Assembly: GCA_938041455.1 (NCBI GenBank)
Contig: CALITO010000007.1
Coordinates: 1 to 64,000, forward strand
DNA from: an uncultured bacterium
GTDB taxonomy: Bacteria > Armatimonadota > JACIXR01
Reading direction: 5' to 3'
DNA length: 64,000 bases
The position numbers and the translations under genes are program-made. Within the stretch, counting starts at the first letter, position 1; each line of letters begins with the position of its first letter. Under the pieces are notes generated by a model. It searched no databases. It was given only the letters and a program-made list of their open reading frames with translations, and was not told the origin of the DNA. Below, one piece after another: positions 21,712 to 44,700 of the stretch.

Positions 21712-22289
21712 TAATTCCACTCCCCTTGCTCCTTTTTCTTCTCTCCCTACCCTCTCTTCCCCAAAAACCTCCTCCCGACCTCGTCATAGTAGCATCTCTT
21801 CTCCCCGAGGGGGAGGATGTGGGCATCGCCTTCTCCCATACCATTCCCAGGGAAAAGGTGGAAAGCTATATCCGAAACCTCGCCAAGCTGGGTAACAGGG
21901 AAGTTAAAAACCTCACCATAAGGGAAGAGGAGGGCAAGACAAGCGCCCATTTTCTCCTTATAGGGGGGAAGCGATGGGGAGATGATAAGCCCTATGTTCA
22001 ACTATTCATCAACGCTTTCTCGGATATAGACTCTCTTTTCCTGGTGCTTTTCCCCTCTCGGCAAATAGGGAGCACCCTCCCCTTGCATTTTGAGAACGAA
22101 GATATTATCATAAAGAATTTAGGAGTGAAAAGTTTCAATTATGAGATAAGACATAAAAGGAAGATGGCATCACCCACCTCCCTTTACTCCAGTTGGGAGA
22201 AGTGGCGTTTCTCCCTTATCCCCCTTGCGTTTGTCCTATCCCTAATATTTGTCATCTTCTTACGGGAAAGGAGGAAAGGCAGAAAATGA
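21708..22289 (+). CDS. Hypothetical secreted/membrane protein (N-terminal signal, C-terminal TM)
   Basis: Hydrophobic N- and C-termini; ATGA overlaps with both neighbours. Confidence 0.55.
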   Translation: MIIPLPLLLFLLSLPSLPQKPPPDLVIVASLLPEGEDVGIAFSHTIPREKVESYIRNLAKLGNREVKNLTIREEEGKTSAHFLLIGGKRWGDDKPYVQLFINAFSDIDSLFLVLFPSRQIGSTLPLHFENEDIIIKNLGVKSFNYEIRHKRKMASPTSLYSSWEKWRFSLIPLAFVLSLIFVIFLRERRKGRK

Positions 22290-23356
22290 CAACTATTAGA
22301 GCGTTTGACATTTTAGGGCTTGGGGTGGAAAGGAAGGCATCGGATATCTATATAAAAGAAGGAACTCCTCCCGCCCTTCGCGTCACGGGCACGGTTCAAT
22401 TCCTGGAGAACGCCCCCGTTTTAACCTCGGAGGACACAGCTCGCTTCGCCCGAGAGATTATGAGCGATGAGCAATGGGAGGAGTTGAATCGGGCCCACGA
22501 GATAGACATGGCTTTCACCTGGGAGGGGAAGGCAAGGTTCAGGGTGAACGGCTACTTCCAAAGGGGAAGCATTGGATTGGTTATTCGTGTCATCCCTTTG
22601 AAGGTGCCCTCTATTGAGGAGCTTATGTTGCCCCCCGTTCTAAAGGACATCGCCCTCACTCGTCAGGGGCTTGTTTTGGTAACGGGACCTACAGGATGTG
22701 GTAAATCCACAACACTTGCTGCGATGATAGATTATATCAATCAGACGAGACCCTGTGCCATCGTGACAATTGAGGAACCGATAGAGTATGTGTATGAGGA
22801 TAAGAAGGCGGTGATAAGCCAGAGGGAGGTGGGGATAGATACTGCTTCCTTTCAGGAAGCCTTGCGTCGTGTCGTTCGCCAGAACCCCGATGTGATACTC
22901 ATCGGTGAGATGAGAGACATAGAATCGTTCAATGTTGCCCTCACCGCCTCCGAGACCGGACACCTCGTCTTCTCAACCGTTCACACCGCCTCCGCTGTGG
23001 AGACACTTGATAGGGTAGTTAATATGTTTCCTCCACCGGATAAACCTCAGATATCAATGCGCCTGGCTGGCTCCTTGAGGGCAATTTTATCCCAAAAGCT
23101 CATTCCCACAGTTGATAAATCCCGCCTCGTTCCCGCCGTGGAGGTGTTGATCTGCACACCCACCGTATCAAAATACATAGAGGAGAGCAGATTCGGACAC
23201 ATCTACGAACTTATGAGCGAGGGGGGCTTTTGGGGAATGCAGACGATGAATCAAGCTCTTTACAAGCTCTACAAAGAGGGATATATTAGTGAGGAAGAAG
23301 CTCTCGCAAATGCGGGGGTCCTTTCCGAGATGCGACAAATCATCAGAAGAGGCTAA
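22286..23356 (+). CDS. PilT-family twitching motility ATPase (paralogue 1)
   Basis: ASDIYIKEGTPPALRV, GPTGCGKSTTLAAMIDYIN, ASP-box-like LRRVVRQNPDVILIGEMRD, TGHLVFSTVHT. Confidence 0.93.
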   Translation: MTTIRAFDILGLGVERKASDIYIKEGTPPALRVTGTVQFLENAPVLTSEDTARFAREIMSDEQWEELNRAHEIDMAFTWEGKARFRVNGYFQRGSIGLVIRVIPLKVPSIEELMLPPVLKDIALTRQGLVLVTGPTGCGKSTTLAAMIDYINQTRPCAIVTIEEPIEYVYEDKKAVISQREVGIDTASFQEALRRVVRQNPDVILIGEMRDIESFNVALTASETGHLVFSTVHTASAVETLDRVVNMFPPPDKPQISMRLAGSLRAILSQKLIPTVDKSRLVPAVEVLICTPTVSKYIEESRFGHIYELMSEGGFWGMQTMNQALYKLYKEGYISEEEALANAGVLSEMRQIIRRG

Positions 23357-23374
23357 AAAGGAGGTGCCATAGTT

Positions 23375-24460
23375 TTGGCTTATCCCTATTCCTTGGACGA
23401 TTTATTGAAGATGACGGCGGAGAGGGACGCTTCCGACCTTCACTTGAAGGTGGGACGCCCACCCATCATCCGGGTCTACGGCGACTTGCTTGAAACGAAT
23501 CTCCCCCCTTTGGGTCCCGAGGATGCAGAGGACCTCATCTATTCCATTCTCTCCCCCGAGCAAAGAAAGCGATTTGAGAGCCAATGGGAACTCGACCTCT
23601 CCTATCATGTCCCGGGATTGGCAAGGTTTAGGATTAATGTATATCGGCAAAGGGGCTACATCGCCGCCGCTCTACGGTTAATTCCCTTCCACATCAAGAC
23701 AATAGACGAGCTCCTTCTCCCCCAGGTTCTCAAGCAGATAGCGATGCGACCTCGTGGTCTTGTCCTCGTTACAGGACCCACAGGTTGTGGTAAATCCACA
23801 ACCCTCGCCGCTATGCTCCAGCATATTAATTTGAATAAGCGCGCCCATATAATAACCATAGAAGAACCAATAGAATTCCTTTTCCAGGACAGGTTCAGTT
23901 TCTTTGAGCAGAGGGAAGTGGGGCAGGATACTAAATCCTATGCCCACGCTCTCCGTCATATCCTCCGTCAGAACCCTGACATCATCCTCGTGGGCGAGAT
24001 GAGAGACCTTGAGACTATAAGCCTCGCCATAAGAGCAGCTGAGACGGGACATCTCGTCCTTTCCACACTCCACACAATTGATACTCCCCAAACGGTGGAC
24101 AGGATAATAGATGTATTTCCCCCTGAACAGCAGGAGCAAATAAGGACCCAGCTCTCTATGACCCTCGTAGCCTGCATCTCCCAATCCCTTCTCCCCCGTG
24201 CTGATAGGCCGGGAAGGATAGCGGCGGTTGAGGTGCTCATCGCTATTCCTTCCATCCGGGCTCTGATAAGGGAGGGGAAAACCCATCAAATATACTCTTT
24301 GCTTCAAACGGGAACGGAATATGGTATGTTCTCAATGGATATGCATCTTTTGGAACTTTACAAGGCTGGACTTGTGACCTATGAGGCGGCCTATGCGAGG
24401 GCGCAGAACCCGGCTGAGTTTGAGCAAAGGGCGAGGGCGCTTCGCCCCGCAAGAGCATAG
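23375..24460 (+). CDS. PilT-family twitching motility ATPase (paralogue 2)
   Basis: ASDLHLKVGRPPIIRVYGDL, GPTGCGKSTTLAAMLQHIN, LRHILRQNPDIILVGEMRD, TGHLVLSTLHT. Confidence 0.94.
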   Translation: MAYPYSLDDLLKMTAERDASDLHLKVGRPPIIRVYGDLLETNLPPLGPEDAEDLIYSILSPEQRKRFESQWELDLSYHVPGLARFRINVYRQRGYIAAALRLIPFHIKTIDELLLPQVLKQIAMRPRGLVLVTGPTGCGKSTTLAAMLQHINLNKRAHIITIEEPIEFLFQDRFSFFEQREVGQDTKSYAHALRHILRQNPDIILVGEMRDLETISLAIRAAETGHLVLSTLHTIDTPQTVDRIIDVFPPEQQEQIRTQLSMTLVACISQSLLPRADRPGRIAAVEVLIAIPSIRALIREGKTHQIYSLLQTGTEYGMFSMDMHLLELYKAGLVTYEAAYARAQNPAEFEQRARALRPARA

Positions 24461-24488
24461 AATATAAACAGAGGGAGGTAATGGAGCT

Positions 24489-25556
24489 ATGAGAGCATTG
24501 GATAGAATGCACAACCTTCTCCAGCAGGTAAAGGAGCGAGATGCTTCCGACCTCATATTGAAAGCGGATACCCCTCCCATCTTCCGCATCTATGGTGACC
24601 TTGTGACCAACGAGGAAGCCCCTCTATCACCTGAAGAGGTGAGGGAGCTCGCCTTCTCCATCCTCACTGAGGAACAGAGGCGAAGGTTTGAGGACGAATG
24701 GGAACTTGACCTCGCCTATGAGGCACCGGGCATCGCGCGCTTCCGCGTCAACCTCTTCATCCAGAGGGGAAATGTTGGTATTGCCTTCCGCCTCATCCCT
24801 TACCGCATTATGTCTATGGAGGAGATAGGCATCCCCGAGGTGGTGAGGAGCTTTTGCGAGCGTCCCAGAGGAATAGTAATTGTCACGGGACCCGCCGGCT
24901 CAGGCAAATCCACTACCCTCGCCGCTATGATAGACTATATAAACAGCAATTTCCCTCTCCACATCGTTACAGTTGAGGACCCCATAGAATTTCTCCACGA
25001 GGACAAGAAGGGATTAATCACCCAGAGGGAAGTGGGCACCGACACCCTCTCCTTCCCTAACGCCCTCAAGTATGTCCTCCGTCAGGACCCCGATGTGATA
25101 ATGGTGGGTGAGATGAGAGACCTCGAGACAATAGCCCTCTCCTTAATAGCGGCGGAGACGGGACACCTCGTATTCTCCACCCTCCATACTCCCGACGCAG
25201 TGCAGACAGTGGACAGGGTGATAGATATATTCCCACCTTCCCAGCAACCCCAGATAAGAACCCAGCTTGCTTCCAACCTTATCGGGGTCATCTGCCAGAC
25301 GCTTGTGAAGCGGGCGGATGGTAGAGGAAGGGTCGCTGCCTTTGAAGTGCTGGTGGGCACCCCTGGTGTGAGGGGACTTATAAGGGACCAGAAGAACTAC
25401 CAAATAAACTCGCTCCTCCAAACGGGGATGAAGCAGGGGATGATGACCCTTGACCAGCATTTAGCTCAACTTGTGAAGAGGGGAATAATAACGAAGGAGG
25501 AGGCACTGAGCAGGGTTAAGGAGCCGAAGGAATTTGAGGCGATGATAAAGGGTTAA
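24489..25556 (+). CDS. PilT-family twitching motility ATPase (paralogue 3)
   Basis: ASDLILKADTPPIFRIYGDL, GPAGSGKSTTLAAMIDYIN, LKYVLRQDPDVIMVGEMRD, TGHLVFSTLHT. Confidence 0.94.
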   Translation: MRALDRMHNLLQQVKERDASDLILKADTPPIFRIYGDLVTNEEAPLSPEEVRELAFSILTEEQRRRFEDEWELDLAYEAPGIARFRVNLFIQRGNVGIAFRLIPYRIMSMEEIGIPEVVRSFCERPRGIVIVTGPAGSGKSTTLAAMIDYINSNFPLHIVTVEDPIEFLHEDKKGLITQREVGTDTLSFPNALKYVLRQDPDVIMVGEMRDLETIALSLIAAETGHLVFSTLHTPDAVQTVDRVIDIFPPSQQPQIRTQLASNLIGVICQTLVKRADGRGRVAAFEVLVGTPGVRGLIRDQKNYQINSLLQTGMKQGMMTLDQHLAQLVKRGIITKEEALSRVKEPKEFEAMIKG

Positions 25557-26620: not shown

Positions 26621-26648
26621 TTGACAAATGTTATGAATGCTGTATAAA
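26621..26648 (+). promoter_or_regulatory. sigma70-type promoter upstream of the 26681 gene
   Basis: TTGACA-N16-TATAAA, followed by AGGAGG before ATG 26681. Confidence 0.75.
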
Positions 26649-26680
26649 ATAGGAGGAATACGGCAAAAGGAGGTTAGGAT

Positions 26681-27358
26681 ATGGAGGATATATTCGTCCC
26701 AGACGAAGAACTGGGTAAAGCGCCCGTTGTGAAGATAACGGGGAAGGGGAAAGAACGGGGGAAGATAGAGGTCAGCATAACTCCAAAGGCTATATATGTC
26801 AAGGCTCTGGCAAAAAACGAGCTCTTCCTTAATTTTCGGATAGAGGAGATAAGGCTTTTTCAAGGAAAATACACGGCAGTCCTCAAACCCATAGGGTTTC
26901 GCAAATCTCCCTTGTTGATAACCCGCCAATATCGTGGGGATATAGCCTTGGACAATGTGGTTATCCCCGAGCGATATAGGGAAAGAGTGGAAAATATGTT
27001 AGAAATGGAGGAGGAGGTTGCTACTACTCGTTCAAAGGGTGGGCGAGGAAGGGGGGAGCACTTGCTGATAGAAGAATATTACCTTCCCATACTGGAATCA
27101 CTTGCAGAGAAGGGAGGGAGGGGGGTAGCAAGGGAGGTGATAGATAGAGTTTACGAGAAGATAAAGGACAAGCTTAAAGAAGAAGATAAGAGCTTCCTTA
27201 AAAGTGGGCAACGTTTTTGGATTAATCGGACACAGTGGGCGCGTTTGCGCCTTGTCCATAAGGGGTATTTGCGGGATGATTCTCCAACTGGGATTTGGGA
27301 ACTATCGGAGGAAGGTTGGAGTTATTTGAAGGAGTTAAAGAGGGGCAGGTCTTATTAA
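26681..27358 (+). CDS. Uncharacterised protein with C-terminal Mrr_N-like winged helix, no nuclease domain visible
   Basis: LLIEEYYLPILESLAEKGGRGVAREVIDRVYEKIKDKLKEEDKSFLKSGQRFWINRTQWARLRLVHKGYLRDDSPTGIWELSEEG matches the pattern of Mrr N-terminal domains. Confidence 0.65.
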   Translation: MEDIFVPDEELGKAPVVKITGKGKERGKIEVSITPKAIYVKALAKNELFLNFRIEEIRLFQGKYTAVLKPIGFRKSPLLITRQYRGDIALDNVVIPERYRERVENMLEMEEEVATTRSKGGRGRGEHLLIEEYYLPILESLAEKGGRGVAREVIDRVYEKIKDKLKEEDKSFLKSGQRFWINRTQWARLRLVHKGYLRDDSPTGIWELSEEGWSYLKELKRGRSY

Positions 27359-27360
27359 CT

Positions 27361-27392
27361 TCTGAGGCGTGCCCATATGGGCACGCCTCAGA
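27361..27392. repeat. Perfect 32-bp palindrome (hairpin/terminator candidate)
   Basis: TCTGAGGCGTGCCCAT|ATGGGCACGCCTCAGA immediately after the 27358 stop. Confidence 0.85.
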
Positions 27393-27502
27393 GGGGCAAA
27401 ACCCTAAACCAGAAAGGAGGTGAATTGTAGCAAGCAAGCGAGGAGACGCTTGCCATAGTTTAGACGAACTAAGGCGCGGAGATGTTCCCTACTTTTCTCC
27501 CT

Positions 27503-29584
27503 TTATTTGATAGATTGGGGGGTGAAAATGAGGAGGGGAATGCACATCTCCCAAAGGGAGATTCCCCCATGAACAGCTATCTTAGACCCAGATGTCCTCC
27601 CGCTGAACATAAAATAGCCGTAAGCTATAAGATAGTGATTCCCTGGCAAACCCCAATTAGGAGCTTCGCTTTCCGATAGATAAAGGGCATCTTTAATTTT
27701 CTCTTTTGGTCTATTTGCAAGTTCATAGAAGCGATTGCTCCTGCCCTTCGCTTCCTCATGTTCTTCCCTCCCTATGCGCTCCGCCCTCTGCACCCATATG
27801 CTACCGTGGTCCGAGGTTATCACCAGCACCGCTCCCTCACCCCTCACAGCGGAGAGAAGTTGGGAGAAGGGACGAAAACGATAGGCTGTTTCCACCAAAG
27901 CCAATAGTTCTTCCTCCGACTCCGCTACCTTCCCCGTCAAATGGGTTATCTCATCTGCGAAATTCAAAATGAAAACTTTTAAATCCCCTTCCTCCTTTAT
28001 AGCCTTATCCCAATCCCTGCCCTTGCAGTATATGACTTTCTTACCTCTACCAGCATTCCTCTCTATCCAGTCCTTTAACATCTCTTCCTCTCCCTCGTTA
28101 TCCCGTAGATATCCCCTCCCATATTTCTCAGCGATTTCACGGGGTAAAGCACCAGCGAATAGGGCATTGCGGGAGAAGATTGTGGCGGAGGGAAGAATGG
28201 AAAAACAGCCTCCATCTTGGCAATTGTAACCACTCATCTCCCCTCTTATCCAATCCTCCATAACCGCCCACTGGGCGTAGGTCATACCGTCAATTACAAG
28301 GAGATATACGGGCAATCCCTCCCCGAGATAAGGCAGAACCGCCTGAGAAAGAACATCGCAGGAAAGGGTGGGACGGGGTTTCCCCTTAATCCACTGGGGA
28401 TAATTTCGGAGCACGAAGTTAACGAACTCCCTATTCGCGCGGTCTAAAAGGGTCTCCCACTCCTCACGGAGGGGAGAATCACGAAGGGGGGAGTTAGCGG
28501 GCATACTCTTCATTACATTCCTCCACTGGAGGGCTATCTTCCTGCCCAATTCCAACCATTTTTGAGATACTTTAGGGATGTCCTCGCTCTCCTGAGGAAG
28601 GGAGAACTCTTTAGCAAGGAAATCGACGATAGCAAGGATTCTCCCCAGTTCCTCCGAAGCTTTATCCTCCCTCTTCAATGCCCGAGCCGATTCTAATGCG
28701 GATGAATCCCTCCTGTTTTTGCTCAACTGTTCAATTATTTTTCCGCTTATAAAAGAATGGAAATCCTGAGGGAGAAGGGGGGAGAGCAGGGAGGGAATGG
28801 ATGGGAGGGGGATTTTCTCCCCTATCCTTCGCCAATCCAACCGTTCCCAAACTTCGCTCGTTAACCTATTCGGTTCAAGTTTTATATAAGGGTAAATCTT
28901 TCTCGCCCTTTCTTCTATCCCCCATTCCTCGAGCCTTATATTTGCCCTCTCTTCCACCCACAAGAGGAGGAGTTGACGAAGGACCTCCAGTAAATTTTCT
29001 CTATCAAACAACTCATCGGGGGAAAAGCCCACTCCCTCAAGGGAGCCCAAATAAGGGCGGAGGAAATTCCTGGGTAACCCTTCGCCCCTTAGGTGATAAT
29101 TCATAAGGATGGCGAAGGCTTCTCCCGGGGAGGGTGAGGTAGGAATGGGGACTTCGAGAACCGCCCTGAGAACGAAGCCGAGGGTTTCCTCACGCCCCCT
29201 TGGAAGATCGTCATAGGAAGGAGCAAATTGCTCCACCAACTTCCTGCTAACCAGAATTTCGTCAACGATGGGGTGAAGTGAGGGGAAAATTTGGGAAGGT
29301 TTGATGATGAGAGGGAGGGAGTATCTTTTGACATCGGGAGGGATTTGCTTTTCGCTCTCCGAAACGATGATGGCATTAGCCGGCTTGTCCTCTTCCATTC
29401 TCTCCCTCAAAGGTTCATAGAAGATACGGAAATCTATGGGATTGGAATATCGGTGGATTGCCAGGTTGGGGAATAGGTTTCGAAGATAAGGGGAAGCGAT
29501 GCCAAAGGGGTCCACTACCCAAAGAAAGCGATGACGGTCGAAAAACTTCCTCTCTATCACCTGCTTGATGCGCTCCGCTAGCAA
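27503..29584 (-). CDS. pglZ: PglZ-domain protein (BREX alkaline-phosphatase superfamily)
   Basis: VYLLVIDGMTYAQWAVMEDW, SILPSATIFSRNALFAGALPREI, LVITSDHGSIWV, AVHGGISLWEMCIPLLIF. Confidence 0.88.
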   Translation of the reverse strand: MLAERIKQVIERKFFDRHRFLWVVDPFGIASPYLRNLFPNLAIHRYSNPIDFRIFYEPLRERMEEDKPANAIIVSESEKQIPPDVKRYSLPLIIKPSQIFPSLHPIVDEILVSRKLVEQFAPSYDDLPRGREETLGFVLRAVLEVPIPTSPSPGEAFAILMNYHLRGEGLPRNFLRPYLGSLEGVGFSPDELFDRENLLEVLRQLLLLWVEERANIRLEEWGIEERARKIYPYIKLEPNRLTSEVWERLDWRRIGEKIPLPSIPSLLSPLLPQDFHSFISGKIIEQLSKNRRDSSALESARALKREDKASEELGRILAIVDFLAKEFSLPQESEDIPKVSQKWLELGRKIALQWRNVMKSMPANSPLRDSPLREEWETLLDRANREFVNFVLRNYPQWIKGKPRPTLSCDVLSQAVLPYLGEGLPVYLLVIDGMTYAQWAVMEDWIRGEMSGYNCQDGGCFSILPSATIFSRNALFAGALPREIAEKYGRGYLRDNEGEEEMLKDWIERNAGRGKKVIYCKGRDWDKAIKEEGDLKVFILNFADEITHLTGKVAESEEELLALVETAYRFRPFSQLLSAVRGEGAVLVITSDHGSIWVQRAERIGREEHEEAKGRSNRFYELANRPKEKIKDALYLSESEAPNWGLPGNHYLIAYGYFMFSGRTSGSKIAVHGGISLWEMCIPLLIFTPQSIK

Positions 29585-29595
29585 CCTCTTTCCTC

Positions 29596-32500
29596 CTATA
29601 TCAACCTTATCTTTATCCTTACATTCTCCCCTCTTTCCGCACCCCTTAAAGCTTCCCTTATCCTCTCCATAAACTCCTCAACCCTGTAGATTCCTCCATC
29701 CCTTATATAGGGGGTTAAGTTTACCTCAATTATCTTCAGTTTCCCCAAAGCCCGCCTTAATCTCTCCTTCATCTCTTCGGAAAGGGGGACAGGTTCGCCC
29801 TTGAGAAGTTTCTCCATCCCCTCACTTGCGGCTGATGTCGCCCCCTCAAACGCCCGCCTTATATCTTCCTCCTTCCTCCTGAGTTCCTCAACCGTCCTAC
29901 CCCATTCCTCATTTACCATCCTCCTAACCCTTTCTATCTCCCCCTTTAAATCCGGCGGATGAGCGGGCTTAAATTCGCAATGGGGACATAAAGGGTAGTT
30001 TTTAAGGCTATCCTTGTAAAGCCTATCGCACTTTCTCCCCAGCAAATCCTCAACCTTCCTCCCTATCACATCCCCTGGATTGGATACCCCTACCCCTCCT
30101 ATTATTCCCCAAACCTCTTTAAGAGTTCGAAGTAGCGCATCCTTCTTTATTCCCTCCAGTTCTTCCCACCAGGGAGCATTATTGCCCACCACCTCTTCGT
30201 GAAGAGCGGTATATCTCTCTATATACTGTTGCTTGAGGAAATTAACCCGTTCCAGCCAATTCCTAAGAAAATTCTCATCCTCCACCCTACTGCCCACCAA
30301 CTCGGCAAGCAATTCATTCCCTTCCCCCGAAAGCCTTTCCCCAGGAGGTAGAGAAATCCCTTGGAGATAATCTATTTCCCTATTGAGCGCCCCTTGGAGT
30401 TCTCCTATCCCTTCAAGTGATTTGAGCCCCTTCCAAGCTTCTATGTAATCTCTATACTTTTCCTCCACCAATTCCCCAAGTTTTCTGAAGCCCTCCTCAG
30501 GAGAGACATTCTCCCTGATAACTTGGAAAAGATCCTCCACCAACCCCTTCACCTTTCCCAAATTATTCAAAAGCAAGTCCTTATTGAAAGGGGAATGGAA
30601 ACCCCTTAATCTCTCCCCCAGTTGCTGGAGGTTATACTGCTCCAGGAGCTTCCTCAGTTCCTCCCAAAGAGAGGATCTCTCCTCCTGAGTTTCCGTCTTG
30701 ACCTTGCTACCAAATATCTCTCGCAACAGTTCAATAACCTCGGGCGTTACTTCTATCTCCAACTTATGAAGATAATAATGGGGTAAGAAGAAATTAAAAC
30801 CTACCAGTTCCTCAAGGTTGTGGCGGAAGAATTCCCTTCCCATTCCCTTAACACTCAGCAATCCCTTGCTCACAAGGGCGAGGATGAGGAACTCCACTAT
30901 ATCCTCTGTGAGACCATAGGGCTTCTCCCTTAACTTTTTGTAAACCTCTTCTACACTCGCGAAATCCCTAACTTTTAGGGCATCCATTATGAGTTGGTAA
31001 TATTCCAAATCCTCCCTTATGTAATACTCCCCCTCCCCTTCTTTGAGGAGAAGTCCAGTGGAGGAGAGATCCTCAGCGTAATCCTCCAGAGTTGGAGTAG
31101 GGGGAGAGAGTTTGCTTAGATAACGGATTAAATCTCTCGCCGTTTTCCTGCCTATCTTGCGGGGGAACTGAGGATGGCGGGGATAGAGGCGGGCGAGTAA
31201 CTCCTCCAGGCATTTGTGCAAGGTCTCGGCAAAAGGTTTGGGCAAAGGCGTTAGGAGAAAGGGAAGGCTTCCTCTTCTCCAATATACCTCTTCCACCAAT
31301 TGCTCCACTTCCTCGGAGGCACGGATGGCCATTGCCTGGAGCCTCTCCATCACCTCCTTCGGTTGCCCCCCCTCCAAAAGGCGCCTTATGGCAAGCCTCC
31401 TTTTAAGCCTATGCAACTCCTCCCCACCCAATTCCTCCGGACGCCAGACGAGGATTCTCTCATCCCTGAGTTCCTTCTGGGAGAGGTAATCGGCTGGCAG
31501 ATTGGGACGAAGTATTAGAAGGAGGAAATCTACATCCCCCTCTTTGAGTCTATCATTTGCTTCCTCGGGAAGATATGGGTCCGCTTCACTAATAAATCTA
31601 CCCTCTCCTTTTCTCTCCGTCCCCCGCCACTCCACCCTCAAACCACACCATCCTTTTATCTCCATCTCCCTCGGCACCCCCATTTCTCTCAAACCCCTCA
31701 AAACCTCGTTCCATAACCCTGGGTCATCATCCCTTATCTTCCCAGCCTCGCTTTCCACAAGGATTTCAACTGGAATTCCTTCCGTCTGAATTACATATAC
31801 CGCATCAATGTCCATCCCCTCGGCAAGGTAGATGTAAGTTCCCTGCTGGAATAGTTTCTCCATAAGATGGGCAAAGAATTGGTAGTTCACATCCTCAATT
31901 ACCCGATAGAGGATGAACTCCGCCAGTTCCCGGCATTTTCTCTTCTCCCCAACTATGTGGAGTATAGCGAGCGCCTTTATCGCCTTCAAAGCCCATTCCC
32001 TTTCCTCTTCCTCCATCCAAAGGGGAATGCCCTCCCGGAAGTAGGGGACTATATCCCTTACCAAAACCCCATAATTCGTATGGGAGGCGAGTTCACCTTC
32101 CAGATGATCATAGAGTTCGGAAAGGGTAACGAGTGTATCATAATCTTGCTCTTCGATCTCCTTGGCGCTTTGGGAGAGGAAGGAGATGATGCTCCTCGGA
32201 CCAACTTCCCTAACCACCCGCTCGTAGAAGTGGAGGATTGCGGGATGGACAGGATAAAGGTCCACGAAGGAGCGTTCATCAAAGGCGAGGGAGGGGAAAT
32301 AATTCTTCCGAAGAAGGGAATAGAGTTTTCGCAATTCCTCCACCTGCGCCTCGCTCTTCTTCAGCACCCTCTCCCTGGCTACCTTCTGTAGGTTGAAATA
32401 GGGAATTTGGAAGTTCTCATATCTTTGACGGATGCGGTTGAGGTTTTCCCTCTCCGCCCCCATTTTCTCGGGGTCAAGTATATCCTCTTGAAGGGAGGCG

Positions 32501-33291
32501 AGGACGAAGAAATTATAGTGGGCGGAAGCCTCGCCTAAATCCCTAAGGAAGGCAATGTCCCTGGCGAACTCAGCTGTCCCCCCTCCTTTACCCCTTAGGA
32601 AATCGTAAAGTTCGTCAACTATGAGGACAAGGGCATTATACCCACCAAATTTATCATTGAGGAGGCTCAGCGCCCTTTCCATAACCCCCTCCACTTCCTC
32701 TTCTATCTCCGGGCGAGTGCCTATCTTAGAAAAGAACTGCCTCCCTAAATCTAATGCCTCCTCAGGATGAGATGATTTGAGATACTCCCAACTTTCCCTT
32801 GTCCGTTCCTTCTCCCTTAAGAAGCTCTCAAAGCGGGGGTCCTCCTCAGCTTTTCTGATGTATTGAGCGGGGGCGAGATAAACTGGCTCCCCTAAAATAT
32901 CGCTTAACTGCCTCTCCAATTCCAACCAGATGTAATCCTGAAGATCCACCCTCCCCGGGGAAAGGTGAATCCAGATGGGATGGAATCGCTTCCCTTGAAA
33001 TTCGGGGGCAAATGAGCGTATCCGCTCGTTCCTAACCTTTTCCCAGAGGTGAGGGTGCTGGAAGAGATCGCCGAGGAAAGCGAGTAGGTGGCTTTTGCCA
33101 GTGCCATAACCGCCGATGATGAAGAAGGAGTTCTTCTCCCTCCTCTGGAGGAAGCGCTCCAGAAGAAAGCAAATTTGCCCCTCCAATCTCTCATCAGCAA
33201 CGAATGTTTCAACTATCTTCCCCGGATCGTGGTGGGTTATCTTGACAACTTCCTCAACTTCCTCTATTTGGACGAGTTCTTTAACCTTCAT
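29596..33291 (-). CDS. BrxC/PglY-like large P-loop ATPase (DUF6079-like)
   Basis: FFIIGGYGTGKSHLLAFLGDLF Walker A, ALVLIVDELYDFLRGKG Walker B, 1231 aa, 11 nt from pglZ; C-terminal CPHCEFKP zinc-like pair. Confidence 0.75.
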   Translation of the reverse strand: MKVKELVQIEEVEEVVKITHHDPGKIVETFVADERLEGQICFLLERFLQRREKNSFFIIGGYGTGKSHLLAFLGDLFQHPHLWEKVRNERIRSFAPEFQGKRFHPIWIHLSPGRVDLQDYIWLELERQLSDILGEPVYLAPAQYIRKAEEDPRFESFLREKERTRESWEYLKSSHPEEALDLGRQFFSKIGTRPEIEEEVEGVMERALSLLNDKFGGYNALVLIVDELYDFLRGKGGGTAEFARDIAFLRDLGEASAHYNFFVLASLQEDILDPEKMGAERENLNRIRQRYENFQIPYFNLQKVARERVLKKSEAQVEELRKLYSLLRKNYFPSLAFDERSFVDLYPVHPAILHFYERVVREVGPRSIISFLSQSAKEIEEQDYDTLVTLSELYDHLEGELASHTNYGVLVRDIVPYFREGIPLWMEEEEREWALKAIKALAILHIVGEKRKCRELAEFILYRVIEDVNYQFFAHLMEKLFQQGTYIYLAEGMDIDAVYVIQTEGIPVEILVESEAGKIRDDDPGLWNEVLRGLREMGVPREMEIKGWCGLRVEWRGTERKGEGRFISEADPYLPEEANDRLKEGDVDFLLLILRPNLPADYLSQKELRDERILVWRPEELGGEELHRLKRRLAIRRLLEGGQPKEVMERLQAMAIRASEEVEQLVEEVYWRRGSLPFLLTPLPKPFAETLHKCLEELLARLYPRHPQFPRKIGRKTARDLIRYLSKLSPPTPTLEDYAEDLSSTGLLLKEGEGEYYIREDLEYYQLIMDALKVRDFASVEEVYKKLREKPYGLTEDIVEFLILALVSKGLLSVKGMGREFFRHNLEELVGFNFFLPHYYLHKLEIEVTPEVIELLREIFGSKVKTETQEERSSLWEELRKLLEQYNLQQLGERLRGFHSPFNKDLLLNNLGKVKGLVEDLFQVIRENVSPEEGFRKLGELVEEKYRDYIEAWKGLKSLEGIGELQGALNREIDYLQGISLPPGERLSGEGNELLAELVGSRVEDENFLRNWLERVNFLKQQYIERYTALHEEVVGNNAPWWEELEGIKKDALLRTLKEVWGIIGGVGVSNPGDVIGRKVEDLLGRKCDRLYKDSLKNYPLCPHCEFKPAHPPDLKGEIERVRRMVNEEWGRTVEELRRKEEDIRRAFEGATSAASEGMEKLLKGEPVPLSEEMKERLRRALGKLKIIEVNLTPYIRDGGIYRVEEFMERIREALRGAERGENVRIKIRLI

Positions 33292-33324
33292 TCTTCACCA
33301 CTCCATTGGAAAGCGTTCTTTTCA

Positions 33325-33353
33325 AGTGTAGGATGAATTCCGCTTTAAGTCAA
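33325..33353 (-). promoter_or_regulatory. Minus-strand promoter for the brxC-like/pglZ unit
   Basis: Reverse complement: TTGACT-N17-TACACT. Confidence 0.55.
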
Positions 33354-33367
33354 GATTTACAACTTTA

Positions 33368-33396
33368 TAGACGAGGTTTCCCAAAAATCATATAAT
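33368..33396 (+). promoter_or_regulatory. Plus-strand promoter for the MTase/BrxF-like unit
   Basis: TAGACG-N17-TATAAT, 13 nt before ATG 33410; no Shine-Dalgarno. Confidence 0.55.
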
Positions 33397-33409
33397 ACTG
33401 TAGAGAAAG

Positions 33410-35731
33410 ATGGATAAGGAGAAACTTTTTTCCTGGGAGGAGAATCCTTATCTCGGCGATTTCGTCAGGGAGTTCGCCAAGCCATACGACCCAAATAACG
33501 ATGACTATAACCCCTCACTCTATACCGAGGACATAAAATCGGGCAAGAATGACCCGATCTATAATGTCCATACATATTGGACGAAGGTCCCTCCCCAGGG
33601 AATAGCCAAGTTAATTCAGAACTTCACCTCGCCGGGGGATATTGTCATAGATCCCTTTTGCGGTTCGGGAATGACGGGCGTAGCTGGTCTTATGACGGGA
33701 AGGCATACCATCCTGATAGACCTCTGCCCCGCCGCCACTTTCATAGCCAAGAACTACACCACCCCTATCGATCCCTATGACCTAAAGAGAGCGGTGAGGG
33801 AGATAGAGGAGAATGTAAGGGAGGAGATGGAGTGGCTATATGAGACGATTTGCAGGCGGTGTGGAGGTAAGGCGATAATAAATTACACCATTTGGAGCGA
33901 TGTTTACCAGTGCCCAATTTGTGAGACGAGGATGGGCTTCTGGGAAGTTGCGGTGAAGGATGGGAAGGTGTTGAGAGAATGGGAATGCCCAGGTTGTGGC
34001 TACGAACTGAACAAATTAAGGGCTAAGTTAGTGGGGACGGAGCCGGTGAGGGTGAATTACAACTGCCCTCGCTGTGGGAGGAGGGAGGATGAGATAAGCA
34101 GGTTTGACTTGAGGAAATTGGAGGAGATAGAGGGGCGGGAAATTCCCTACTGGTATCCGAGAAACGAGTTCCCCCAAGGCCAGGAAACGCAGAGGCTTAT
34201 AAGGAGGGGCATTCGACGGGTTGACCAATTCTTCACGAGGCGCAATCTCTGGGCTCTCGCCCGCCTCTGGAAAGAGGCGGAGGCATACCCTTCAGAAATA
34301 GAAGATAAACTAAAATTCGTTATTACGAGCATTTTGTTTGGTTCTTCTAAAAAGGAGATCTACCGTCCAAAATACCAGGCAGTAGCCAGAGGATGTATCT
34401 CTCATAACCTTTATTTACCGAGCACATTTCCAGAAACAAACTGCTTAAATTTCTTTCTCCGTAAATCTTCTGGGATTTGTCAAGCTTTTTCTGGATTATC
34501 TTTTCTCTCCCAGGTCCTTATCTCAACTCAATCTGCTACTAATTTAGGGCAAATTCCCGATAGTTCAATTGACTACTGCTTCACCGACCCGCCCTACGGC
34601 GCCAATATAAACTACTCCGAACTCAACTTCGTCTGGGAAGCGTGGCTCGGCCACTTTACAAAAATAGAGGAAGAGGCAGTGGTAAATCCTGTCCAGAAAA
34701 AGGGATCGGAGGAATACAGGGAATTGATGGAGAGGTCTTTCAGGGAAATCTTTCGGGTATTAAAGCCGGGGAGGTTCATATCGCTCATCTTCCACAATTC
34801 CCAGACATCCGTCTGGAACGCCATCCAATCCGCCCTCCAAAATGCCGGCTTCCAGATAGCCTTCATCGGCGCCTTTGACAAAGTGCAGAGGACATTCAAC
34901 CAGGTGACGACTACGAGGAGGGCGGTGGGCTACGATGTCCTCGTCCACGCCTATAAGCCCAAACTGACCAATCATATAAGAAGGGAGAGAAAGGTTGATT
35001 TGGAGGAAATATTGGACTGGCTTGAGGAGAGGTTGAGGATTCTTCCCATTGGGAAGAACGAGGAACGAACTGCGGGGAAATTACACAGCGATTTTATCCG
35101 TTGGTGCCTATCCCAAGAAATTTCCCTCGGTAGTGTAGAGAAGGTGGGGATAAAGGATTTTGATGCTTTTCAAGGGCTTTTGAGGGACAACTTCCACGAC
35201 ATAGATGGCTACTATTTTCTCCCCGGGCAAATTCCCCAACCGCCCCAGGGCTCTCTCTTCGCCACGATAAAGGATGTCGCCAGCGCTCTCAATTTTCTAA
35301 GTGAACTCTTAAAGGAGCCGAAGAGTTACAGCGATATACAACCCGCCTTCCTCCAGGCTTTGGGAGGGAGGAAATTGGAGAGGAGTTTAGAGGATTTACT
35401 GGATGAGAACTTCGTTTTTATTGAAGAGGAGGGGAAGTGGCGGGCGCCTACGGAGAAGGAGTTGGAAGAGTGGGGGAAGATAAAGAGGCTGAAGCAGGTG
35501 AAGAAGTTTGAGAGTTGGTGGAGGAGGTTCAAGAAAGGGGAGGAGAAGCGGTTGCCCCCTGAGGAGATAATGGTAAGTGGGTTAAGGGAATGGTGGCGGG
35601 CGGGAAGGCACTGGGCTATGGTTGAGGTAAAGGAGATGTTGGAGAGGAGGGGGCTATGGAGGGATACGCCATATAAGGCTCGCGAACTTATGACGATAGC
35701 GGAAGGGGTTATTAGGAGAGGGAATGAGTAA
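33410..35731 (+). CDS. Adenine-specific DNA methyltransferase, PglX/PglXI (DUF1156)-like, with zinc-ribbon insertions
   Basis: VIDPFCGSGMTGVAGL (motif I), DYCFTDPPYGANINYSEL (motif IV); CRRCGG..CPIC and CPGC..CPRC pairs. Confidence 0.85.
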   Translation: MDKEKLFSWEENPYLGDFVREFAKPYDPNNDDYNPSLYTEDIKSGKNDPIYNVHTYWTKVPPQGIAKLIQNFTSPGDIVIDPFCGSGMTGVAGLMTGRHTILIDLCPAATFIAKNYTTPIDPYDLKRAVREIEENVREEMEWLYETICRRCGGKAIINYTIWSDVYQCPICETRMGFWEVAVKDGKVLREWECPGCGYELNKLRAKLVGTEPVRVNYNCPRCGRREDEISRFDLRKLEEIEGREIPYWYPRNEFPQGQETQRLIRRGIRRVDQFFTRRNLWALARLWKEAEAYPSEIEDKLKFVITSILFGSSKKEIYRPKYQAVARGCISHNLYLPSTFPETNCLNFFLRKSSGICQAFSGLSFLSQVLISTQSATNLGQIPDSSIDYCFTDPPYGANINYSELNFVWEAWLGHFTKIEEEAVVNPVQKKGSEEYRELMERSFREIFRVLKPGRFISLIFHNSQTSVWNAIQSALQNAGFQIAFIGAFDKVQRTFNQVTTTRRAVGYDVLVHAYKPKLTNHIRRERKVDLEEILDWLEERLRILPIGKNEERTAGKLHSDFIRWCLSQEISLGSVEKVGIKDFDAFQGLLRDNFHDIDGYYFLPGQIPQPPQGSLFATIKDVASALNFLSELLKEPKSYSDIQPAFLQALGGRKLERSLEDLLDENFVFIEEEGKWRAPTEKELEEWGKIKRLKQVKKFESWWRRFKKGEEKRLPPEEIMVSGLREWWRAGRHWAMVEVKEMLERRGLWRDTPYKARELMTIAEGVIRRGNE

Positions 35732-36236
35732 GGGTTTCTTAAAAAAGCGGGATTGGGCTGTTGAGGCGATGAGGGCTTTTCTTCAATCCCCCTTCCATAG
35801 GAGGGCGGTGTTCATCCTCCTTGGTAAATGGGGAACGGGTAAGACCAGCGCCCTCAAAAAACTTGCCAGGGAGATGGGGAAGAAAATAGTTAATGCCAAT
35901 CTTTATTTGGCTAATTATGTTAAGGAGAGGAAGGCAGAGAAGTATATGTGGAGGGATTTGATAGAGGAGGGATGGAGGAAACTTTTTCAGGAGCTTCCTG
36001 AAGGGGATTTCCTAATCATAGATAAGGTGGAGATATTCTATGATTTCCCCGATATCAATTTTCTTAAGATAGCGGAGGAGGAATGTCTTTTACAAAAGAG
36101 GAAGAAGGCGGTAATTGGGATAGGGGGATATATTGTAGGAGGGATAATCTATTTTTGCGACGATGATTATCGCCTGGCTGGGGCGAGCGACTGGAAAGGA
36201 AGGCTCTACGATTTAAACAGCGAATTCTATGGGTAA
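35724..36236 (+). CDS. Small P-loop ATPase, BrxF-like
   Basis: VFILLGKWGTGKTSALKKLAREMGKKIVNANLYLANY; GDFLIIDKVEIFYDFPDINFLK; overlaps the upstream MTase and the downstream MTase. Confidence 0.65.
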   Translation: MSKGFLKKRDWAVEAMRAFLQSPFHRRAVFILLGKWGTGKTSALKKLAREMGKKIVNANLYLANYVKERKAEKYMWRDLIEEGWRKLFQELPEGDFLIIDKVEIFYDFPDINFLKIAEEECLLQKRKKAVIGIGGYIVGGIIYFCDDDYRLAGASDWKGRLYDLNSEFYG

Positions 36237-37395
36237 GAAAATAAGAGATAGGAAAATATCCACATACAATCCCCAACAGTTAGCGTTTGATTACTTGGGG
36301 AGCGGAGCTCCTTTGCCTAAGAGGCAGGTTATTTTGAATAAGGAGAAATTTAGAGAAACCCTCTCCACCATCGTTAACTTGCACGATTTATCATCTATAA
36401 AGGAGAGGGTGCTGTTTCTAAAAGGTATAGTAGAAGGCTATCAGGAGGACAAGATAGGCATCCTAAATATAGAGGCGGAAGGGGACACGCTCACTCGCCG
36501 AAGGGATGTCCTTTTCTCTGAACTCGCCCAAATATTGGAATCCCAAACCACAGAGAGGGCAAAGTATTACCTCAAGAGATTGTTACGAAGTGTGGAGGAG
36601 GCAAAGACTTCAAAGATCAACGACATAGACCTCTCCCGTTGGAAGGAATATGACGAAATCATAACCGATAGCCTCTGGCTACTGGGGAAAAGGGACACAT
36701 CGGGCGCTCATTTAGGTTGGTATTGGGGAAATTTCATTCCTCAGATACCCCATCAGATGATTTTGAGATACACTAAGAAGGGGGAATGGGTTTTAGATGC
36801 ATTTGTGGGTAGTGGAACGACCTTAATAGAGTGTAGGAGATTAGGGAGAAATGGGATAGGAATAGAACTAAATCCCGCTGTGGCAGAGCGAGCAAGGGAA
36901 TTAATCGCTGAGGAGCCCAACAAGCAGGGCGTGGCCTCGGAAGTAGTTATAGGTGATAGCAGGAAGATAGACATAAAGGCTATTCTTAGTAAATATGGGC
37001 TCAACAGCGTTCAACTTCTTATAATGCATCCCCCCTACCACGATATAATTAAATTTTCCCAGGACCCGAGGGACCTCTCCAATGCGCAAAGCGTTGAGGA
37101 TTTCCTAAGGATGTTTGGTGAGGTCGTTGATAATCTAAGCCCCTGCTTAGAAAGAGGAAGATATCTTGTTTTAGTAATTGGGGATAAGTATTCAAAGGGC
37201 GAGTGGATACCTTTGGGGTTTCATTGTATGCAGGAGGTGTTGAGGAGGAATTTTAAATTAAAAAGCATAATAGTTAAAAATTTTGAGGAGACGCGAGCCA
37301 AAAGGAACCAGAAGGAGTTGTGGCGCTATAGGGCATTGGTAGGGGGGTTCTATGTATTTAAGCACGAGTATATCTTTTTGTTTAAGAAAAAGTAA
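36229..37395 (+). CDS. DNA methyltransferase (motif I before a non-canonical MHPPY motif IV)
   Basis: WVLDAFVGSGTTLIECRRLGRNGIGIELNP; QLLIMHPPYHDIIKF. Confidence 0.85.
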   Translation: MGKKIRDRKISTYNPQQLAFDYLGSGAPLPKRQVILNKEKFRETLSTIVNLHDLSSIKERVLFLKGIVEGYQEDKIGILNIEAEGDTLTRRRDVLFSELAQILESQTTERAKYYLKRLLRSVEEAKTSKINDIDLSRWKEYDEIITDSLWLLGKRDTSGAHLGWYWGNFIPQIPHQMILRYTKKGEWVLDAFVGSGTTLIECRRLGRNGIGIELNPAVAERARELIAEEPNKQGVASEVVIGDSRKIDIKAILSKYGLNSVQLLIMHPPYHDIIKFSQDPRDLSNAQSVEDFLRMFGEVVDNLSPCLERGRYLVLVIGDKYSKGEWIPLGFHCMQEVLRRNFKLKSIIVKNFEETRAKRNQKELWRYRALVGGFYVFKHEYIFLFKKK

Positions 37396-37396
37396 G

Positions 37397-38236
37397 ATGC
37401 CCCTCCTAAGTCCAGAAGAAGTCCAAAATCTAAAACTGAAATGCATTCCCTTACCCCAACTAAAGGAACTTGCTACTCTTCTTGGTTGCCCAAAGGAAGG
37501 GCGCGCGGCGGAAATTATAAGGAGGATTTCGGAAAAGGAAGTGGATACCGGAATAATAGACAAATTTATGAGGCAGAAATACCTAATGGTAAAAGTAAAG
37601 AGAAGACAAGAAGTCATCCCCGATGAAGAACTTAAGCAAGAACTCCTAAAGGTCCAAACTTTTTCCTGGGGTGTTATTCAAGGACAATTAGACCCTAAAA
37701 TCCAGACCCAATATGTGAGGCAAATAGCCAAATATGATGAACTATTGGCGAGGGTGAGAGCAAGGCTTCACGAGGAGATAACAAACTATGTTGTTTGCAC
37801 TTGGTATAACTATTGGACCACTTGCTTGATTGAAGAACACATAGGTCTTCACCCCAAGGTAATTCCCGCGCTTAAAAACATCAAGGGAATAGATATCTTC
37901 TTTGAGGGTCAACCTTTTGATTTGAAGGTTTCTTATGTGCCGCGAGGGTATGACCCAAAGAAAGCGGTAGAAAATCCGAAGGATTTAGCCATCTGGATGT
38001 ATGAACATCAAGGAACACAAAGGTTTGGAGCAGATAACAGGGTGTTCGTTATCCTTTTAGATAAAGAGCATCCCGAGAGGAGTTGGGAAGTGAAAAGGGA
38101 TTTCGATCTGGTTTTCAGGAGGATAGACGAGTTTCTCCATAGGGAAAGCGTTTCCCCAAAGGACGAGGTGACTTTTTCCTTCCGCCAAAGGACATATAAG
38201 GCTATAGCGAAAGTATTGTTGGTCACAAAACCCTAA
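37397..38236 (+). CDS. Putative PD-(D/E)XK restriction endonuclease with SAP-like N-terminus
   Basis: ALKNIKGIDIFFEGQPFDLKVSYVP (D-Xn-DLK); LKLKCIPLPQLKELATLLGCPKEGRAAEIIRRI (SAP-like); starts 1 nt after the MTase stop. Confidence 0.65.
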   Translation: MPLLSPEEVQNLKLKCIPLPQLKELATLLGCPKEGRAAEIIRRISEKEVDTGIIDKFMRQKYLMVKVKRRQEVIPDEELKQELLKVQTFSWGVIQGQLDPKIQTQYVRQIAKYDELLARVRARLHEEITNYVVCTWYNYWTTCLIEEHIGLHPKVIPALKNIKGIDIFFEGQPFDLKVSYVPRGYDPKKAVENPKDLAIWMYEHQGTQRFGADNRVFVILLDKEHPERSWEVKRDFDLVFRRIDEFLHRESVSPKDEVTFSFRQRTYKAIAKVLLVTKP

Positions 38237-41780: not shown

Positions 41781-44700
41781 TCAACGCATAGTGGGGGATG
41801 GGGGGAGGAGAAGGGGTAGGGAGGAAACCCATCTTTGTAGTTCTTGCCATTCCCCTAAAATCTCCTCCCTTGAGATAGGAAGTTGAGGAAGCGAGCCTCT
41901 TAAGGATTTCCGTCGCACCAATATCCCCCATTTTTTCACCCTGTAGGATAATTCACCCTCTCGCCAACTTCCCCTTATGAGGGAGGAAAGCCGGGATAGA
42001 GGGATATCGCTCTTTTCCGAAATCTCCTCCAAATCGACCCCTTTCGTCCTTTTATCGCTTATCCCTGCTTCTTCAAGAATTCCCCTCAATTTCTTATCCC
42101 CGATATAGCCCAATCTTATCATTTCCACCTCTCGCTCAACCATTGCCCAATCTGCCTTGCCCTCCTCAAATAGCAGATGGAGAATCCTCAGCGCGCGGAG
42201 AGTGCTGGAATCCCCTTCTAAGAGAAACTCCTCCCTGCTTTCTAACCGCTCCATCATTTCCTCTATGTTTTTTTCATCAGGAAACATTGAATTTATCATC
42301 TCGCTGGTGTAGGTTTCCCTATCCCAGCAGGAAAGGGCATAACCTCCTCCATCCTCCCCTCCCGCTTGGGAAGCCTCCATAAGATAGGAGAGTTTATCAC
42401 CTATCGGTGGATAATGAATGACGAGCCCTATCCCCTCTTTATCCGCCTTCTGCCCGGGAGGAAGTATGAGGATGGGGAACTCGTCTTTTTGGAAAAGGGG
42501 GAGCAAATCCTCACCCCACCTAGCGAGGAAACCCATCTTGTTGAGTTCTTCTTCTAATTTTTGTCCATCCCATGGCTTATAAATGAGCGCATTTTTCCCC
42601 ACCTCCTGGGCCCAAATTAACAAGGGGAAAATATCCTTCGTTCGTCCGAAAGTAAGGGAAGGGACGCTCTCCCCTAAGGAAATGAACTCCATTTCTTTAA
42701 GGAATGGCGGTTCACCATCAAGATGTTCTCTCAATAATGGGGGTAGCAAGAATATCTTTCTCTTTATCTGGGGAATATTCTTCCTCAAAAGGGGGTCGAA
42801 GAAGGTGCTGGAATATTGGAGGGAAAGGACATTGGGCACTATAATTGCATCCGCATCTTTTAGGCTCTCCTTCATATCTTCAAATTCCAGCCAATAGGGG
42901 TGGAGGGCAACCGCCTTTATCTTCCCCCTATGCCAACCCTGCAGTAATTTCTTCACACCCCCTATGGGGGGTGTGGATAAATAGACGAGTTCTTCTTTAA
43001 AAGGGGTATCGAAGTTGAGGAAGGGATCGGTGCGCGAGATTATGGCGACTTTTCTATCTTGCTGAAGGAAGAAATGCACGAGAAGCGATAAATCCGTAGT
43101 TTCCAAGAGGAAGGAGCCTTCCCCCTCCAATCTCTGGAGAAGGGGAAATTTTTCGGGAGGGATAAACACGGGCTTATGCTCCACTTCCTTTACTCTTTCC
43201 AGTTTTTCCTCCCAGGGGAAATTGGGGGCTACCCTTTGCTTGTAATACTCTGCCATATGGTCTCTCACTTTCTCATAGAGCGCTTTTCTGCTCATTTCTA
43301 TCTCCTCTAACCTTGTGAAACCCGGCAGTGTCCCAAGCGCCATTTCCCTTGTGGCTACATCCGCACGCAAGCGTCTGTCCAAGAAGAGGACAACTCCCCT
43401 GTCACTACGGGACCTTATTAACCGCCCGAACCCCTGCTTGAAGAGAATGAGGCTCAAGGGAAGTAGGTAATGGGCGAATTCGTCTTCCCCCCTTCTCCTA
43501 ACATCCTCTCGCCTCGCTTGAATGAGGGGGTCCCCAAGAGAGGGGAAGGGCAACTTTTCCACAATTAGATAACAAAGAGAGGCTCCCGGCACATCTACCC
43601 CTTCCCAGAGTGAGCGCAGCCCCATAAGGGTGGCTTCCTCCACCTCCTTGAATTCCTTGAGCATCTGTCTTTTAGAGAAGCCCGTCCTTTGCCAGTAAAG
43701 GGGCAACTTCCTATCGGTCAAAATTGGCTCCAGTGCCTCACCTACCCATTCCAACCTATCCCTTGCCGCGAAAAGGACCAGCGTCCTACCTTCAACATAA
43801 CTTATGAATTCCGCCAGTTCCTCCAAGACATCTCTCTTGAATTGTTCTATGTTTCGTTGGGAAGCATCACTGGGTAGATAATAGGGAAGAGCCAAGAGGA
43901 CATTTTCCTTGTAGTTGAACACGGGTGGCAAAGATATGAGATACTCATCAGTGATGTGTCCCTCTAATCCCAATCTATCCAAGAAGAAGCGGAAGCCTTT
44001 CTCCGCTACTGTTAAGGTCGCAGAAGTCAGCACTACGGAGCGGAACACTTGGTAAAGCCTTTCCTCCAAGTCCTCGCCCACCCTCACGGGAGCATCCCTC
44101 ACTGACCAGTTTAAGAACTTGCCCTGAAGTTCGGAGGGAGATAGGGTAACCAGTTCTTCCGGATTTAAGCCCTCAACTTCTACCTCCTCCCTCAATAGGT
44201 TAACCTCTATCCAACGCACTCTTCTCTCCTTATCATAATCCCAGTTCAAAAGCTTCTTTAATTGGGAGGCTCTCTCAGAAAGATTTTTGACCGCTGTGTC
44301 TAATTCTTCATAAAGGCGAGGGGCTATGGCTCTTAGGAATTCTCCCAGCGTATCTTTATATCTCTCCAATTTCTCAAGACCTCGCTGGAACTCCCCTACC
44401 TTTTTAATTACCCCCCACCATTTCCTCCTTTTCCCTGGGGGAATCCTCAGCCAAAGGGAAGCTCCGTATAGTTGATGGAGACGCTTGCCCTCGCTCAAAA
44501 GGAAAGCATACAGGGTTTTGCCCATTTCATCGTTAACCTCCCATAAATCCTTCACACCAGCATACATTCCCCTTACCTCCGGCGTATTTCCTACCACCCT
44601 CGCAATTTTGGGGAGGAGCCCTCGCCTCCCATCCTCGCTTAAAAGGAGGGCGAGGAAGGTAGCGAACATTCCCTTGTTTACCTCCTCGCTGAAAGCATCG

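What the first reader, a model, noticed from the sequence alone, without database searches (positions are those of the whole stretch)
26621..38236. Composite BREX-3-like locus with embedded methylase/nuclease pair and a Mrr_N-only protein, with no helicase visible
Seen in sequence: PglZ and a 1231-aa BrxC/PglY-like ATPase on minus; divergently a PglX(I)-like MTase, a 170-aa BrxF-like P-loop protein, a second MTase and a PD-(D/E)XK-like protein, all with overlapping or 1-nt junctions; a Mrr_N-like winged-helix gene on the flank. Established knowledge: BREX type 3 is described as BrxF, BrxC, PglXI, BrxHII, PglZ and BrxA. Here I recognise no BrxHII-type helicase and no BrxA, while a complete MTase+REase candidate pair is fused into the same operon. 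Inference: a non-canonical BREX variant, or a BREX/R-M hybrid in which the nuclease replaces or supplements the missing effectors.
Basis: partly seen in the sequence, partly recalled or inferred. Interest (0 to 1): 0.85.

Follow-up and report, generated by a model that had tools for sequence, protein, structure and literature searches.

The report
Helicase-free BREX-3-like locus plus R-M cassette
The locus is a real phage-defence system related to BREX type 3 that lacks the usual helicase anywhere in this genome assembly, belongs to a deep side branch of that family, and carries next to it an ordinary restriction-modification gene pair that in other genomes stands alone.

Summary
The gene content is confirmed: PglZ, BrxC (DUF6079), PglXI and BrxF form a BREX-3-like core, followed by an orphan-type methyltransferase and a PD-(D/E)XK-type nuclease, with an Mrr_N winged-helix gene on the flank. 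Two congeners carry the same quartet, again with no BrxHII in the neighbourhoods read. The own genome (97% complete) has no SNF2-family helicase and no BrxL. BrxA is not missing: a homologue lies unlinked on another contig, and in one congener it directly follows PglZ. The methyltransferase-nuclease pair is not BREX core: absent from one congener, unlinked and damaged in the other, standing alone in further genomes. So 'BREX/R-M hybrid' is not supported beyond co-location. A BREX-3 operon without helicase is not new in itself (15 of 49 loci here; a 2026 survey finds BrxHII in 77% of type 3). Unusual is the position: PglXI, BrxC and PglZ all fall outside the canonical type-3 clade, no sampled PglXI row outside it has BrxHII, and three such relatives carry BrxL instead. 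The Mrr_N gene recurs beside BREX genes in a congener and inside one distant BrxL-type operon, a candidate component. Verdict: new variant of a known kind.

The parts
26681..27358 (+). 225-aa protein: N-terminal domain of unknown kind (about 1-110, mostly strands in the model) plus C-terminal Mrr_N winged helix; candidate DNA-binding component (linkage suggestive, not proven)
   Evidence: PF14338 E=2.4e-14, residues 132-217; homologues in both congeners, directly upstream of PglXI in G001; model pLDDT 74, weak winged-helix fold matches
27503..29584 (-). PglZ, 693 aa, BREX-3-like; predicted metal-dependent phosphodiesterase/nuclease effector; DGMT, SDHG and VHGG motifs intact
29596..33291 (-). 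BrxC/PglY-like ATPase, 1231 aa (DUF6079); Walker A GGYGTGKS at residue 60, Walker B VLIVDEL at 222, C-terminal CPHC
33410..35731 (+). PglXI (BrxXI) adenine methyltransferase, 773 aa; DPFCGSG and DPPY motifs and four CxxC pairs in the insert
35724..36236 (+). BrxF-like P-loop protein, 170 aa, Walker A GKWGTGKT intact
36229..37395 (+). second DNA methyltransferase, 388 aa, with HPPY in place of DPPY; modification half of a separable R-M cassette, not BREX core
   Evidence: PADLOC PDLC03351 5e-151; homologues in 44 of 292 genomes of the phylum; pair stands alone elsewhere
37397..38236 (+). PD-(D/E)XK-type nuclease with SAP-like N-terminus (279 aa from ATG 37397; longer ORF from 37352); restriction half of the cassette
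   Evidence: conserved IE ... ID ... FDLK in six homologues; no library hit; AlphaFold model unusable, pLDDT 41

Best explanation
This is a BREX-3-like defence system of a deep, BrxHII-free side branch. Inferred mechanism: PglXI, a zinc-ribbon-bearing adenine methyltransferase, marks host DNA at its target sites. BrxC (large AAA+ ATPase), BrxF (small P-loop protein), the unlinked BrxA and possibly the Mrr_N winged-helix protein assemble on unmodified incoming DNA. PglZ then nicks or hydrolyses nucleic acid or nucleotides and blocks phage DNA replication without a dedicated SNF2 or BrxL motor. The downstream methylase-nuclease pair is an independent, acquired type II-like R-M cassette that shares the transcript and adds a second, separate barrier. 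Shown here: gene identities, motif integrity, genome-wide absence of SNF2 and BrxL, unlinked BrxA, conservation in three species, separability of the R-M pair. Inferred: the mechanism, complex formation, co-transcription and the role of Mrr_N.
For: Families. Quartet conserved in G001 and G002 at 49-73% identity with the same PglXI-BrxF and BrxC-PglZ pairs, comparable with the unlinked housekeeping-type DinG (52-53%), so compatible with vertical descent. BrxA homologue in all three genomes. No SNF2 in G000, no BrxL in any of the three. Trees: window trio outside the 72-row canonical PglXI clade (support 100) and, with type-1 rows added, sister to canonical type 3 for BrxC (93). Outside the canonical clade 0 of 7 complete loci have BrxHII versus 40 of 52 rows inside (Fisher p=1.5e-4; p=1.3e-3 with related rows merged). 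R-M pair separable; low GC 0.425-0.433 versus 0.499 +/- 0.022 in 29 other genes of the window. [quoted passage not shown]
Against: No functional data. Assemblies are drafts (50 contigs, 97% complete), so a helicase in the missing 3% cannot be excluded. A helicase of another superfamily (for example DinG) could serve. Only three congeners were available, and the deep tree nodes have long branches and modest support in places. The longest-branch rows (L066, L095, G013) may be misplaced. The BrxA assignment rests on weak similarity plus gene position.
Confidence: 0.68

Rival explanations
1. A BREX/R-M hybrid: the methylase-nuclease pair is an integral effector module that replaces BrxHII.
For: Overlapping start of the methylase with the BrxF stop and 1-nt junction to the nuclease; embedded PD-(D/E)XK auxiliary nucleases are common in BREX loci (PMC12839542).
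Against: Pair absent from congener G001, unlinked and with a damaged nuclease in G002, standing alone in G284 and G286; lower GC; none of the 84 PglXI loci scanned has a Nuc homologue.
Confidence: 0.1
2. A decayed BREX-3 system: BrxHII has been lost and what remains is a non-restricting relic, perhaps only methylating.
For: No helicase genome-wide; genes scattered over the chromosome; methylation in type 1 BREX needs only a subset of the genes (PMC13326643 abstract).
Against: All core ORFs open with catalytic motifs conserved between species at 49-73% identity, which is not expected of relics; no sampled member outside the canonical clade has BrxHII.
Confidence: 0.15
3. An ordinary secondary loss: a canonical BREX-3 locus that simply lost its helicase, like those of Bacillus, Syntrophaceae or Atribacteria.
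For: 15 of 49 complete loci here lack BrxHII; the 2026 survey reports BrxHII in 77% of type 3 systems (PMC12839542).
Against: PglXI, BrxC and PglZ of the window trio all lie outside the clade that holds those losses.
Confidence: 0.2

Closest known systems
BREX type 3 (BrxF, BrxC, PglXI, BrxHII, PglZ, BrxA)
   Same: Five of the six components by profile or homology: BrxF, BrxC/DUF6079, PglXI and BREX-3-type PglZ in the window, BrxA elsewhere in the genome
   Different: No BrxHII; BrxA unlinked; two divergent transcription units; all three large proteins outside the canonical clade; an Mrr_N protein beside it
Halorarius halobius plasmid BREX (NZ_CP101162, PglXI-BrxA-BrxF-BrxC-PglZ)
   Same: Helicase-free PglXI-type BREX outside the canonical clade
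   Different: One operon, BrxA linked, a metallophosphoesterase follows; only 21-34% identity
BrxL-bearing PglXI operons L123, L138, L088
   Same: PglXI-type methylase outside the canonical clade; L088 PglXI is the nearest outside the genus (44%); L123 has an Mrr_N gene in the operon
   Different: They carry BrxL (PF13337) and a longer PglZ; the window genome has no BrxL
Type II restriction-modification pair (methylase + SAP-like/PD-(D/E)XK nuclease)
   Same: Second methylase and nuclease adjacent, same strand, as in G284, G286 and (damaged) G002
   Different: Here it overlaps the end of a BREX operon; nuclease family not in Pfam, PADLOC or NCBIfam

Membership tests
BREX type 3 | PglZ of the type-3 class | tested here: met
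   NF033449 BREX_PglZ_3 1.7e-36, best among the BREX PglZ models, though 126 bits is below the curated cut-off of 250
BREX type 3 | BrxC/DUF6079 ATPase | tested here: met
   PF19557 229.7 bits, cut-off 23
BREX type 3 | PglXI (BrxXI) methyltransferase | tested here: met
   PADLOC PglXI 2e-171
BREX type 3 | BrxF | tested here: met
   PADLOC BrxF 1.3e-9; NF033453 26 bits, under its cut-off of 50
BREX type 3 | BrxHII helicase | tested here: not met
   no significant hit in the window; no SNF2 match in the whole genome assembly
BREX type 3 | BrxA in the locus | tested here: not met
   homologue present but on another contig; homology to BrxA is weak: 22% to an annotated haloarchaeal BrxA, E=0.001, position after PglZ in G001
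BREX type 3 | phylogenetic placement in the canonical clade | tested here: not met
   outside it for PglXI (100), BrxC (98/94) and PglZ (100/99)
BREX type 1 or 4 (BrxL-bearing) | BrxL | tested here: not met
   PF13337 absent from G000, G001, G002
DUF499-centred BR systems | DUF499 ATPase plus helicase | tested here: not met
   BrxC matches DUF499 only at 0.046; no helicase
Type II R-M (embedded pair) | adjacent methylase and endonuclease found as a unit | tested here: met
   pair recurs in G002, G284, G286; nuclease beside another methylase in G088
Type II R-M (embedded pair) | sequence-specific cleavage and protection | not testable with these tools
   needs biochemistry

The most novel reading that the evidence does not exclude
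A separate, old branch of PglXI-type BREX never used BrxHII. It works either with BrxL (L088, L123, L138) or, as in this genus, with no dedicated motor, with an Mrr_N winged-helix protein as an extra DNA-binding component and its genes scattered over the chromosome.
Probability: 0.3. Interest if true: 0.65.

Novelty: new variant of a known kind. Interest (0 to 1): 0.45.

Why it matters
I know of no test of whether BREX type 3 needs its SNF2 helicase. A lineage that keeps every other component, and in which no SNF2 helicase or BrxL can be found genome-wide, gives a natural test of what the motor does. It also warns that BREX components can be unlinked, so operon-based callers will report 'missing' genes that are present elsewhere, and that R-M genes next to BREX can be passengers.

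Tried and rejected
(1) Single-protein scan of genome contigs with BrxC found nothing; an alignment of PglXI was needed. (2) Reading DinG (41781-46163) as the substitute helicase: it is unlinked to BREX in both congeners and two unrelated genes lie between, so not adopted. (3) SNF2 proteins of G001 and G002 as dispersed BrxHII: they sit in other neighbourhoods (DUF499/DUF1156-type genes, a large methylase-like gene) and are not shared. (4) AlphaFold of the nuclease was unusable (pLDDT 41), so the PD-(D/E)XK call rests on motif conservation only. (5) Fold search with the Mrr_N model gave only weak winged-helix matches, none at E<=0.001; the N-terminal domain stays unassigned. (6) Promoter and terminator scans found no more than chance.

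Full report
Observation. The ORFs described are present. Profile scans identify PglZ, BrxC (DUF6079), PglXI and BrxF; the best PglZ model among the BREX types is the BREX-3 one. The next two genes are an N6/N4 methylase and a protein without family hits. The flanking 225-aa protein matches Mrr_N only in its C-terminal half. Catalytic motifs are intact: PglXI DPFCGSG/DPPY, BrxC GGYGTGKS and VLIVDEL, BrxF GKWGTGKT, PglZ DGMT/SDHG/VHGG. A profile of five PglZ proteins, the window's among them, matches PorX-type structures at 1e-48.

Own genome and congeners. Two genomes of the same genus carry the BrxC at 55-58% identity. In G002 the order is BrxF-PglXI, a 317-aa gene, then BrxC-PglZ, the same divergent plan as in the window. 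In G001 BrxC-PglZ is followed by a 243-aa gene, and BrxF-PglXI lies about 5 kb further on with the Mrr_N gene directly upstream of PglXI on the same strand. The 243-aa gene is BrxA-like by position and weak similarity. Its homologues lie at G000:C4:17641-18345 and G002:C96, so BrxA is present but unlinked in two of three species.

Helicase. A genome-wide search for SNF2 (PF00176) finds nothing in G000 at E<=0.1, while all 14 control genomes give matches. BrxL (PF13337) is absent from all three. The SNF2 proteins of G001 and G002 belong to other neighbourhoods and are not shared. The DinG gene 3.5 kb downstream is conserved but unlinked to BREX elsewhere.

The R-M pair. The nuclease is found in only 8 of 292 genomes of the phylum. 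In G002 the methylase-nuclease pair is on a different contig, and the nuclease reading frame is interrupted near its end. In G284 and G286 the pair is adjacent and stands alone; in G088 the nuclease follows another methylase. Related methylases occur in 44 of 292 genomes, and two strong matches outside the genus, G102 and G208, have no nuclease homologue nearby. A viral contig carries the methylase (65%) next to a different nuclease-like protein. Both window genes are lower in GC than every one of 29 background genes. Six nuclease homologues keep IE, [I/V]D and FDxK. I conclude it is a passenger R-M cassette. Its overlap with BrxF may give co-expression, which is inference.

Position among BREX systems. 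A scan of GTDB genomes with a PglXI alignment gave 80 named loci. Of 49 loci with BrxC, PglXI and PglZ, including four added reference loci, 34 have BrxHII and 15 do not, in line with 77% in a published survey (PMC12839542). Hence a helicase-free type-3 operon is not new. In the PglXI tree, however, the canonical clade (72 rows, support 100) contains every helicase-bearing row, and the window trio lies outside it with a Halobacteria archaeon locus, solitary methylases, a haloarchaeal plasmid system and two further BrxL-bearing operons. BrxC and PglZ trees make the same split. With type-1 rows added, the window BrxC is sister to canonical type 3 (93). Three outside loci (L088, L123, L138) carry BrxL with a PglXI-type methylase, whereas the survey describes BrxL as specific to types 1 and 4. 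Long branches limit confidence in the deep nodes.

The Mrr_N gene. It occurs in all three congeners, beside PglZ here, beside PglXI in G001, and away from BREX in G002, where it keeps the same ThiI-like neighbour as in the window. One of the BrxL operons (L123) has an Mrr_N-bearing gene between PglXI and PglZ, with a different overall architecture. This is suggestive of a DNA-binding role in BREX but not proof.

Conclusion. The finding is a real, intact, helicase-free BREX-3-like system from a deep side branch, with an acquired R-M cassette behind it. The claim 'works like BREX' is supported by its parts, though no function was tested; 'is a BREX type 3' fails on BrxHII, on BrxA linkage and on clade membership. 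The hybrid reading is not supported.

Noticed in passing
L034:8402-12226, L041:8755-12504, L032:9277-13293, L040:8554-12258: Orphan DUF6079/BrxC-like ATPases among unrelated genes in genomes of the same phylum that have no PglZ match; the four form one clade in the BrxC tree. Role unknown.
   Followed up: partly
L123:3898-17232, L138:4593-17827, L088:4979-16073: BREX operons that combine BrxL with a PglXI-type methyltransferase (BrxA-like, BrxF-like, BrxC, PglXI, PglZ, BrxL); the 2026 survey describes BrxL as specific to types 1 and 4.
   Followed up: partly
L102:12584-15551: Nitrosomonas BREX-3 locus in which a 641-aa AAA/OLD-like gene and a 349-aa gene occupy the place of BrxHII; names by eye.
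   Followed up: no
window 36229-37395 (residues 267-270): The second methylase has HPPY instead of the usual D/N/SPPY motif IV, also in the G002 copy.
   Followed up: no
window 27362-27390: Near-perfect palindrome GAGGCGTGCCCATATGGGCACGCCTC between the convergent Mrr_N and PglZ genes, perhaps a two-way terminator.
   Followed up: no
window 22193-25556: Three PilT-like ATPase genes in a row, judged by eye from the translations.
   Followed up: no
L082:2-12606: G002 carries a DUF499/DUF1156/SNF2-type BR-like system next to a repeat array with GFEPTYKGLK in translation, possibly a CRISPR array; names by eye.
   Followed up: no
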